This document shows positions 58,276 to 61,569 of a stretch of 64,000 bases of DNA, piece by piece. The position numbers and the translations under genes were made by a program. This DNA comes from Chamaelirium japonicum. Lineage: Eukaryota > Streptophyta > Magnoliopsida > Liliales > Melanthiaceae. The DNA is taken from the NCBI GenBank assembly GCA_947650365.1, contig OX393557.1:5246464-5310463 (forward strand), read 5' to 3'. A model generated the notes under the pieces. The model saw nothing but the letters and a program-made list of their open reading frames with translations, was not told where the DNA came from and ran no database searches. Each line of letters begins with the position of its first letter. The first letter of the stretch is position 1.

Positions 58276-58324
58276 ATATATATATATATATATATATATA
58301 TATATATATATATATATATATATA
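58276..58324. repeat. (AT)n microsatellite
   Basis: About 49 bases of pure AT repeat immediately precede foldback element A. Confidence 0.95.
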
Positions 58325-58470
58325 GGGGCATGCTATGCTGCGGCATACGGTGCGTGCGGCACTGCACCGCAGCCGTCTGATGCACGCGCTGCGTGCATCA
58401 TCACATGCACGCAGCAGTGCATCAGACGGCTACGGTACAGTGCCGCACTTACCGCATGCCGCATTATAGC
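58325..58470. mobile_element. Foldback element A in the TA chain
   Basis: The two arms of about 70 bp share TGCGGCAT, TGCGGCACTG and AGCCGTCTGATGCAC, and are inverted around TGCATCATCACATGCA. Related in style to element D, which shares CCGxxxGATGCAC and GTGCATCxGACGGCT. Confidence 0.75.
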
Positions 58471-58716
58471 TTTATCTACTGTTTGTAGTCACCGTTAAGT
58501 TTGCTTCTACCATTTGATGACCCTAGAAGTTGTTGAATTTGATGAAAATCGGTGAGGATGATCATCTGACCCTAGAAAACACCCTCACCAAATTTTAAAA
58601 CCCCTAGGGGGATCAAAATGAAGGCAGCTGATTTTCTCCACCCGTAGGTCACAGCTCACTGTAACATTCCTCTCTCTCTCTCTCTCTCTCGCTGTGTGTG
58701 TATATATATGTGTGTA

Positions 58717-59085
58717 GGGTCAGGATCAGCTGACCGAGCAAATTTTGACCCATATTTGACCTAGCACCTAGAGGTTTTAGAATGTGTTGATTTTTTGTAG
58801 ACATGTTGTCGATGATATGTTGATCATCCTCACAAAAAATCAACACATTCTAAAACCTCTAGATGCATCAAATGTGCTCATCAAATCAATGGTTTTCGAT
58901 CGTCAATTTTAACTGTTGATTTGAAGAGCACATTTGATGCACCTAGAGGTTTTAGAATGTGCTGATTTTTTGTGAGGATGATCAACATCTCATAGATAAC
59001 ATGTCTACAAAAAATTAGCACATTCTAAAGCCTCTAGGTGCTATTAGGGTGCTGGGTTATTTGCTGGGTCATTCGATCCTGACCC
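58717..59085. mobile_element. Foldback element B (GGGTCAGGATC family, diverged copy)
   Basis: The ends GGGTCAGGATCAGCTGACC and CGATCCTGACCC are inverted. Each half contains its own inner hairpin, pairing TTGATTTTTTGTAGAC / GATTTTTTGTGAGGATGATC blocks with TGATCATCCTCACAAAAAAT. It is flanked on the right by (AT)n and on the left by a short TATATATATGTGTGTA tract. Confidence 0.8.
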
Positions 59086-59193
59086 ATATATATATATATA
59101 TATATATATATATATATATATATATATATATATATATATATATATATATATATATATATATATATATATATATATATATATATATATATATAT
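59086..59193. repeat. (AT)n microsatellite, 108 bp
   Basis: A pure AT array separates foldback elements B and C. Confidence 0.95.
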
Positions 59194-59591
59194 GGGTCAG
59201 GATCGGATGACCCATCAAAATTTTGACCCATTAATAACCCAGCACCCTTTGAGGCACCTAGAGGTTTTAGAATGGGCTGATTTTTTGTAGACATGTTGTC
59301 TATGATATGTTGATCATCCTCACAAAAAATCAGTCCATTCTAAAACCTCTAGGTGCATCAAAGGGTGCTCTTCAAATCAACGGTTAAAATTGACAGTGAA
59401 AAACCGTTGATTTGAAGTGCGCATTTGATGCACCTAGAAGTTTTAGAATGGGCTGATTTTTTGTGAGGATGATCAACATACCATAGACAACATCCCTACA
59501 AAAAATCAGCCCATTCTATAACCTGTAAGTGCCTCAAAGGGTGCTGGGTTATTAATGGGTCAAAATTTGCTGGGTCATCCAATCCTGACCC
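59194..59591. mobile_element. Foldback element C (GGGTCAGGATC family)
   Basis: It is 398 bp, begins GGGTCAGGATCGGATGACCC and ends with its inverted copy. It is nearly identical to element G at 61092-61489 and diverged from B. The inner hairpins use GATTTTTTGTGAGGATGATC. Confidence 0.85.
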
Positions 59592-59630
59592 TATATATAT
59601 ATATATATATATATATATATATATATATAT
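59592..59630. repeat. (AT)n microsatellite
   Basis: A 39-base AT array separates elements C and D. Confidence 0.95.
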
Positions 59631-59741
59631 GGGGGAATGCTTAGATGCGGTCCGCAGCCATCCGATGCACCCGCCGCGTGCATCAGATGCACGAAGTGGT
59701 GCATCGGACGGCTGCGGACCGGACTGGACCTAAGCATTCTC
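59631..59741. mobile_element. Foldback element D
   Basis: GAATGCTTAG at the left end and CTAAGCATTC at the right end are inverted. The inner arms pair GCGGTCCGCAGCCATCCGAT with the right-hand ATCGGACGGCTGCGGACC. It is about 111 bp. Confidence 0.8.
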
Positions 59742-59826
59742 ATATATATATATATATATATATATATATATATATATATATATATATATATATATATATA
59801 TATATAGAGAGAGAGAGAGAGAGAGA
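59742..59826. repeat. (TA)n-(GA)n compound microsatellite
   Basis: An AT array to 59806 is followed by a GA array up to foldback element E. On the other side of E the mirror order (CT)n then (TA)n occurs. Confidence 0.95.
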
Positions 59827-60383
59827 GGGATGATTGGTTGCGTTGTGCGCTGCCGGGCCGAAATGCGCTGTGCGCAAAGGCCGTCCGATTCGCACTGATC
59901 AAACGGCCCGCAACCGCTCCCGCTCCCGCTCCCGCACCGCACAGCACAGCACCTGCACTGCACAGCACCGCACTGAACCTACACCGCACAGCTGATCACC
60001 GTTCGATTTTAATAGGATTTTCGATCAAGCGGCCTAAATACGTTTCGCTGTTACTGTAGCGGCTACAGTAACAGTGAAAAGTGTTTAGGGCCACTCGATT
60101 GCCATCAATACAATGGAATCGAACGGCCCGAAATACTTTTCGCTGTTACTGTAGCCGCTACAGTAACAGCGAAAAGTATTTAGGCCGCTCGATCGAAAAT
60201 CCTATTAAAATCGAACGGTGATCAGTTGTGCGGTGCAGGTTTGGTGCGGTGCGGTGCTGTGCTGTGCAGTGCAGGTGTTGTGGTGTGCGGGAGCGGTTGC
60301 GGGCCGTTTGATCAGTGCGAATCGGACGGCTTTTACGCACAGCGCATTTCGGCCCGGCAGCGCACAGCGCAACCAATCATCCC
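59827..60383. mobile_element. Foldback element E, 557-bp palindrome
   Basis: The ends GGGATGATTGGTTGCG and CGCAACCAATCATCCC are inverted, and the arms extend about 250 bp with few mismatches. Each arm holds its own hairpin (CGCTGTTACTGTAGC paired with GCTACAGTAACAG), so the element can form one large or three smaller cruciform stems. It is non-coding. Confidence 0.85.
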
Positions 60384-60475
60384 TCTCTCTCTCTCTCTCT
60401 CTCTCTCTCTCTCTCTCTCTATATATATATATATATATATATATATATATATATATATATATATATATATATATA
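60384..60475. repeat. (CT)n-(TA)n compound microsatellite
   Basis: It is the mirror of the tract left of element E and separates E from F. Confidence 0.95.
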
Positions 60476-61050
60476 GGGGTGGGATCCGTTGACAACCCAA
60501 AATGGGAGGTAAATTTACCTCCCATTTACAACTCGCCATAATCGTTGGTTAGAGGTTTCCGAATTTGCTGATTTTTTGTGAGGATGATCAACATGGCAAG
60601 TTGATCATCCTCACAAAAAATCAGCAAATTCTGAAACTTATACGGGCGTCAAATGTGTTATTCAAATTAACGATTCAAATAGACGATTCAAAAACATTTG
60701 GTTCAATCGGCGCCCTTAGAAGTTTCAGATTTTGTTGATTTTTTGTGAGGATGATCATTATGGCAAATTGATCATCCTCACAAAAAATTAACAAAATCTG
60801 AAACTTCTAAGGGCGCCGATTGAATCAAACGTTTCTGAACCGTCTATTTGAACTGTTAATTTAAATAACACATTTGACGCCCTTATAAGTTTCCGAATTT
60901 GCTGATTTTTTGTGAGGATGATCAACTTGCCATGTTGATCATCCTCACAAAAAATCAGCAAATTCGGAAACCTCTATCCACCGATCGAATCAAGTTAAAA
61001 ATGGGAAGTAAATTTACCTCCCATTTTGGGTTGTCAACGGATCCCAGCCC
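60476..61050. mobile_element. Foldback element F
   Basis: The ends GGGGTGGGATCCGTTGAC and GTCAACGGATCCCAGCCC are inverted. A second pair (TGGGAGGTAAATTTACCTCC) follows inside each end. Several inner stems again use GATTTTTTGTGAGGATGATCA. It is 575 bp and non-coding. Confidence 0.85.
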
Positions 61051-61091
61051 ATATATATATATATATATATATATATATATATATATATATA
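61051..61091. repeat. (AT)n microsatellite
   Basis: About 41 bases of AT repeat separate elements F and G. Confidence 0.95.
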
Positions 61092-61489
61092 GGGTCAGGA
61101 TCGGATGACCCAGCAAATTTTGACCCAACAAATAACCCAACACCCTTTGATGCACCTAGAGATTTTAGAATGGGCTGATTTTTGGTAGACATGTTGTCTA
61201 TGGTATGTTGATCATCCTCACAAAAAATCAGCCAATTCTAAAACCTCTAGGTACATCAAAGGGTGCTCTTCAAATCAACGGTTAAAATTGACCGTCAAAA
61301 ATCGTTGATTTAAAGTGCGCATTTGATGCACCTAGAGGTTTTAGAATGGGCTGATTTTTTGTGAGGATGATCAACATACCATAGACAACATCCCTACAAA
61401 AAATCAGCTCAATCTAAAACCTCTAAGTGCATCAAAGGGTGCTGGGTTATTGCTGGGTCAAAATTTGCTGGGTCAGCCGATCCCGACCC
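61092..61489. mobile_element. Foldback element G (GGGTCAGGATC family)
   Basis: It is 398 bp and nearly identical to element C, with the same ends and inner hairpins, which points to recent amplification or conversion. Confidence 0.85.
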
Positions 61490-61569
61490 ATATATATATA
61501 TATATATATATATATATATATATATATATATATATATATATATATATATATATAGAGAGAGAGAGAGAG
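61490..61569. repeat. (AT)n-(GA)n compound microsatellite
   Basis: It closes the foldback chain on the right; the unique sequence GAATAAATACTC follows. Confidence 0.95.

What the first reader, a model, noticed from the sequence alone, without database searches (positions are those of the whole stretch)
58276..61569. Chain of seven foldback elements, most of them separated by (TA)n microsatellites
Elements A-G (110-575 bp) all have inverted ends. Elements B to G are bordered by long (TA)n arrays, two of them with (GA)n or (CT)n added in mirror order; A has (TA)n only on its left. Rice Micron elements are known to target (TA)n, but a serial chain with several different families is unusual. It suggests either repeated targeting of the same microsatellite or that the ends seed new TA tracts, so that each insertion creates landing sites for the next.
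Basis: partly seen in the sequence, partly recalled or inferred. Interest (0 to 1): 0.82.

Follow-up and report, generated by a model that had tools for sequence, protein, structure and literature searches.

The report
MITE chain in TA repeats
A string of small hairpin-like jumping genes has piled up, one beside another, in stretches of repeated TA in a plant chromosome; this habit is already known from rice, guayule and pineapple, and it recurs throughout this genome.

Summary
Seven foldback elements lie at the stated place; an eighth, half-deleted one (R, about 58500-58668) is fused to A, which explains A's missing right-hand TA. B has only a short broken TA run on its left. B, C and G are one family.

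The habit is genome-wide. Exact F left ends sit directly on at least 10 bp of pure (TA)n in 371 of 399 cases, exact A-family ends in 2067 of 2352. Of 67 fetched places, all chosen around copies, 54 hold four or more TA tracts.

The kind is published: SaTar (guayule, rice, sorghum, citrus), Ac-mMITEs (pineapple), MuTAnT, Micron.

I add a phase test. In five families the TA bases on the two sides of the element are equal in 47 of 47 copies (23 A..A, 24 T..T; one worn H-like copy outside the class is an exception); in four others they differ in 31 of 33. This fits staggered insertion into existing (TA)n with odd and even target duplications, and counts against end-seeding of TA in the first group. 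GA/CT tracts look end-derived: mirror order, mainly in certain families. New member of a known kind.

The parts
58276..58324 (.). (TA)n tract, left border of the chain
58325..58466 (+). Element A; family end GGGGCATGCTATAATGCGGC; right end incomplete
   Evidence: intact family members of about 150 bp on TA; 2352 exact family ends in the genome
58500..58668 (+). Element R (not in the finding): right half only, family end GAGGAATGTTACAG, fused to A
   Evidence: 94 alignments when 66 loci were searched; complete copies in L029 and L010
58670..58690 (.). (CT)n tract at the right end of R
58717..59085 (+). Element B, C/G family, end GGGTCAGGATC; TA run on its left short and broken
59086..59193 (.). 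(TA)n tract, 108 bp
59194..59591 (+). Element C, C/G family; flanking bases T..T
59592..59630 (.). (TA)n tract, 39 bp
59631..59741 (+). Element D, end GGGG(G)AATGCTTA; flanking bases T..A (ends out of register by 2)
   Evidence: (40 scored of 1889 candidates)
59742..59806 (.). (TA)n tract, 65 bp
59807..59827 (.). (GA)n at the left end of E
59828..60382 (+). Element E, end GGGATGATTGG
   Evidence: (40 scored of 1276 candidates)
60383..60420 (.). (CT)n at the right end of E, mirror of the (GA)n
60420..60475 (.). (TA)n tract, 56 bp
60476..61050 (+). Element F, end GGGGTGGGATCCGTTG; flanking bases A..A
   Evidence: (40 scored of 2265 candidates, each at least 98% identical)
61051..61091 (.). (TA)n tract, 41 bp
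61092..61489 (+). Element G, C/G family; flanking bases A..A
   Evidence: (40 scored of 4450 candidates)
61490..61554 (.). (TA)n tract, 65 bp
61555..61569 (.). (GA)n beyond the last tract; owner not identified

Best explanation
The chain is a pile-up of at least eight non-autonomous foldback MITEs, most likely Mutator-like, that each inserted on their own into (TA)n. Shown: copies of F and of the A family sit on (TA)n genome-wide; in the fetched loci elements lie side by side, not nested; the flanking TA bases keep a nearly constant parity within each family; the F copies read are nearly identical; TA length differs between two near-identical loci. Inferred: a transposase cuts (TA)n with a fixed stagger (odd, probably 9 bp, for C/G, F, H, I, J; even, probably 8 or 10 bp, for A, D, E/R, E2); repair duplicates that stretch and leaves TA on both sides as target for the next insertion; the TA tracts then change length by slippage; GAG-type ends such as those of E and R slip out into (GA)n and (CT)n; deletions fuse neighbours, as at A/R.
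For: TA flanks: F 371 of 399 exact left ends, A family 2067 of 2352 exact ends; 22 of 22 F copies read have TA on both sides, in 4 of them with a few other bases between. Parity: 47 of 47 equal in five families, 31 of 33 different in four; 17 of 18 A-family pairs on part of contig C1 are A..T. Phase: F left end 198 A to 173 T, as expected for an odd stagger in a symmetric tract; A family 1931 to 136, as an even stagger allows because its two phases are different palindromes. Phase is not inherited as far as 22 F copies show: the 4 T-phase copies differ from each other by a mean of 7.0, from A-phase ones by 6.8. GA next to TA: 32 of 54 E ends against 0 of 42 F, 0 of 22 A, 0 of 21 H and 1 of 35 C/G ends found by their end motifs. 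TA length: 52 against 32 bp at one place in L018/L022. MULE transposases exist here: 150 of 150 scored PF10551 hits over the cut-off, of 1214 candidates.
Against: No target duplication was read in non-TA DNA, so 9 and 8/10 bp are inferred from parity and from other species. No transposase was tied to these ends. No empty site was found. Families were sorted into the two groups after seeing the data, though each is consistent in itself. Exceptions: 2 A..A in the second group, and one worn H-like copy (L005, A..T) that fell into the unclassed 11; the looser list has further departures among copies with worn or shifted ends. The control segments without matching ends are not balanced (62 equal, 98 different), perhaps because they include worn GA-ended elements; not tested. 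Variant A-like and D-like ends with CT do occur (seen), so GA/CT is not confined to E and R. Fetched places were best matches, not a random sample. 17 of 21 readable F copies are A-phase, against 198 to 173 genome-wide; unexplained.
Confidence: 0.77

Rival explanations
1. The element ends seed or strongly extend the TA tracts, so that each insertion into ordinary DNA makes its own TA and thus the landing site for the next.
For: PMC5907723 (Discussion) reports that maize TAFTA empty sites had 6-8 bp of TA that grew to up to (TA)50 on each side. The GA/CT tracts here do look end-seeded. The A..T pattern of families A, D and E is what symmetric seeding would give.
Against: In five families the two flanking bases are equal in 47 of 47, so near-identical ends carry different outward bases; F left ends are 198 A to 173 T. 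Growth of a short pre-existing TA after insertion is compatible with the best explanation and is not excluded.
Confidence: 0.12
2. Capture by homologous recombination: circular copies with microsatellite filler recombine into genomic TA, as the SaTar authors suggest.
For: PMC5907723 (Discussion) finds flanks in guayule that do not fit cut-and-paste and offers this as a speculative model.
Against: It gives no reason for a constant parity per family; carried TA should make phase follow descent, but T-phase F copies are not clustered (only 4 such copies).
Confidence: 0.08
3. Local tandem duplication or assembly artefact.
For: TA tracts are hard to assemble; C and G are 93% identical over 399 nt and B is of the same family.
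Against: The members belong to several families; chains of other make-up recur, with four or more TA tracts in 54 of 67 fetched places; a near-identical pair on two contigs carries the same elements. No reads were available.
Confidence: 0.03

Closest known systems
SaTar elements (guayule gSaTar, rice rSaTar, sorghum, citrus; PMC5907723)
   Same: Short TIR elements on microsatellites, often (TA)n, linked into mixed-family, non-nested chains, with fusions by deletion; a chain of eight is reported in sorghum.
   Different: Family sequences not compared; flank parity is nearly constant within families here, whereas the authors call many flanks inconsistent with cut-and-paste.
Ac-mMITEs of pineapple (PMC8449440)
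   Same: 510-570 and 210-270 bp TIR elements on (TA)n, 46.1% of full-length ones clustered, GA on the 5' and TC on the 3' side explained by slippage at GA..TC ends.
   Different: Two families there; more families and two parity groups here. Sequences not compared.
MuTAnT of Medicago (PMC4486113)
   Same: Foldback TIRs with terminal GGGG/CCCC, TA target, 9-nt duplication reported.
   Different: 218 copies and a mudrA-bearing relative reported there; more than a thousand first-look candidates per element here, no partner identified.
Micron (rice; rSaTar2)
   Same: MITE-like, (TA)n target.
   Different: Sequence relation not tested; known to me here only through the papers above and PMC12550479 (passages), which finds Micron widely in Poaceae and Rosaceae and in few other species.

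Membership tests
SaTar-type microsatellite-targeted MITEs | Short non-autonomous elements with terminal inverted repeats | tested here: met
SaTar-type microsatellite-targeted MITEs | Most copies bordered by microsatellite | tested here: met
   371 of 399 exact F left ends; 2067 of 2352 exact A-family ends; other families not counted genome-wide
SaTar-type microsatellite-targeted MITEs | Mixed-family chains in which no element interrupts another | tested here: met
   on 66 loci, elements A-G only: 9 candidates for a split copy, each explained by separate TA-bounded elements sharing modules when held
SaTar-type microsatellite-targeted MITEs | Some members with 8-11 bp duplications outside microsatellites | not tested
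Mutator superfamily (MULE) | Target duplication of 8-11 bp | tested here: inconclusive
   Only parity could be read: odd in five families, even in four
Mutator superfamily (MULE) | TIRs shared with a MULE transposase-bearing element | not tested
   Transposase hits found, their ends not read
Micron (rice) | Sequence similarity to Micron | not testable with these tools
   No Micron sequence held

The most novel reading that the evidence does not exclude
Two different transposase systems, one with an odd and one with an even target duplication, use the same (TA)n tracts in one genome and jointly build the chains; TA phase parity reads this out even though the duplications themselves cannot be seen in a microsatellite.
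Probability: 0.55. Interest if true: 0.5.

Novelty: new member of a known kind. Interest (0 to 1): 0.4.

Why it matters
It shows microsatellite-bound MITE chains at high density in one more plant genome. The parity test gives a simple way to tell staggered insertion from recombination or tract seeding where target duplications are invisible, a question the SaTar paper left open.

Tried and rejected
Rejected: an inherited TA phase (17 of 21 readable F copies were A-phase; genome-wide 198 to 173, and no clustering among 22 copies). Nested insertion (9 candidates, none upheld). Empty sites among the fetched loci: one search was swamped by module homology (6802 pairs, output cut); L013/L046 and L028/L063 share host sequence but are not clean occupied/empty pairs. 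Transposase frames in the fetched loci: I recognised none by eye among the 45 longest of 141 frames (first 110 residues of each); no family scan was run. The species was not identified. One literature search on target phase listed 6 papers, of which I read parts of two (PMC4486113, PMC12550479); I saw no parity test there or in the parts read of the other two papers, which is not proof of absence. A search naming magnoliids and Lauraceae rested on a guess about the host and told nothing.

Full report
What is there. The window holds seven (TA)n tracts of 39-108 bp within 3.3 kb and only two other TA runs of about 15 bp or more elsewhere. Between them lie foldback elements with long complementary arms (D folds with z = -9.5). 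I add an eighth, R: the right half of an element whose complete copies occur in L029 and L010. In the window it is joined to A, which stops short of its family end; I infer that a deletion fused the two. This explains the missing TA on A's right. Fusions of neighbours by deletion are described for SaTar clusters (PMC5907723, Results).

How common it is. The window is C9:5246464-5310463 of a 1.52 Gb genome. First-look candidates number 1276 for E, 2265 for F, 4450 for G and 1889 for D; 40 of each were scored, so these are not copy counts. Exact F left ends: 399, of which 198 follow TATATATATA and 173 follow ATATATATAT: 371 of 399, 93%. Exact A-family ends: 2352, with 1931 and 136: 2067 of 2352, 88%. 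The remainder includes ends on broken TA, so it is not a count of copies outside microsatellites. Of 67 distinct fetched places (the window's own among them), all chosen around copies, 54 hold four or more TA tracts of at least 12 bp, median 5; what lies between them is laid out. Eight elements in a row is therefore not remarkable here, and a chain of eight is reported for sorghum (PMC5907723, rice section).

Phase test. A duplicated target cannot be recognised inside (TA)n, but its length parity can. If the base before the element equals the base after it, the duplication is odd; if they differ, it is even. One search examined 91 TA-bounded segments with matching ends (at least 12 of 14). Families C/G, F, H, I and J: 47 of 47 equal, 23 A..A and 24 T..T. 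Families A, D, E/R and E2: 31 of 33 different (30 A..T, 1 T..A; 2 A..A). Eleven segments were left unclassed: 6 equal, 5 A..T; of the five, two are A-like and so fit the second group, one is a worn H-like copy (L005) that goes against the first. Segments without matching ends are 62 equal to 98 different and are no clean null. The looser list (144 rows, some spanning two elements) has more departures, mostly among worn or shifted ends. On contig C1 up to 67 Mb, where both lists are complete, A-family pairs are 17 A..T and 1 T..T. An odd stagger in a symmetric tract has no preferred phase (198 to 173 for F, binomial p = 0.21); an even one may have (1931 to 136 for A). The window's own copies agree: C T..T, F A..A, G A..A; D T..A, E A..T. 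Seeding by near-identical ends would put the same outward base on both sides, which the first group excludes. Inheritance of phase with carried TA is not seen in the 22 F copies, though only four of them are T-phase.

GA and CT. (GA)n to the left and (CT)n to the right are concentrated in E-type elements: 32 of 54 E ends carry GA then TA, 11 TA alone and 11 something else (mostly broken GA); E2 2 of 8; F 0 of 42, A 0 of 22, H 0 of 21, C/G 1 of 35. R copies carry them too (L029, L010; not counted). The A count covers only the exact end GGGGCATGCTATAATG; variant A-like and D-like ends followed by CT were seen (L017, L046, L063). The pineapple paper explains the same mirror pattern by slippage at GA..TC ends (PMC8449440, Results). 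I adopt that.

Age and change. The 22 F copies read differ from each other by 6.8 of 577 columns on average in a star-like way, and the window copy by 8 or more from each, which fits one recent burst. They are the closest matches to the window copy, so other F copies may be older. Two near-identical loci on C7 and C121 (60 substitutions in 3468 aligned bases) carry the same elements with TA tracts of 52 and 32 bp at one place, so tracts change length after insertion.

Transposase. PF10551 (MULE) gives 150 of 150 scored hits over the cut-off out of 1214 candidates, many in frames of 700 codons or more. Some lie a few kb from copies (C1:69548997 near F at C1:69551845; C7:18871835 near G at C7:18868143), but with this many copies that is no evidence of a link, and their ends were not read.

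Literature. Read: PMC5907723 (abstract, first part of Results, rice section, first part of Discussion), PMC8449440 (abstract, first part of Results, Discussion), PMC4486113 (abstract, Discussion), PMC12550479 (passages). They describe this kind of element and chain in other plants. Micron, TAFT and TAFTA are known to me here only through these papers.

Change made on checking. The confidence in the best explanation is lowered from 0.82 to 0.77, because the odds summed to more than one and because the recount added the L005 exception and the variant ends with CT.

Noticed in passing
58500-58668: Right half of an eighth foldback element (R) between A and B, missed in the finding.
   Followed up: yes
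61555-61620: (GA)n followed by GAATAAATACTC beyond the last TA tract; may be the worn end of a further element.
   Followed up: no
16360-16844 and 32741-33155: Two arrays of nearly the same 51-54 bp unit in the same orientation, on either side of frames that look Ty3-like by eye (no family scan); perhaps in the two ends of one retrotransposon.
   Followed up: no
L022 (C121) and L018 (C7): Near-identical 3.5 kb on a small contig and a large contig; may be an allele left in the assembly.
   Followed up: partly
L058-L079 (F copies): 17 of 21 readable F copies closest to the window copy are A-phase, although the genome-wide ratio is 198 to 173.
   Followed up: partly
61948-62232: CTC-rich tandem array with a 106-bp period close to the right of the chain.
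   Followed up: no
L013 and L046: The same 559 bp of host sequence (96%) runs at the same point into two different truncated foldback elements, as if one break had been joined to different partners.
   Followed up: no
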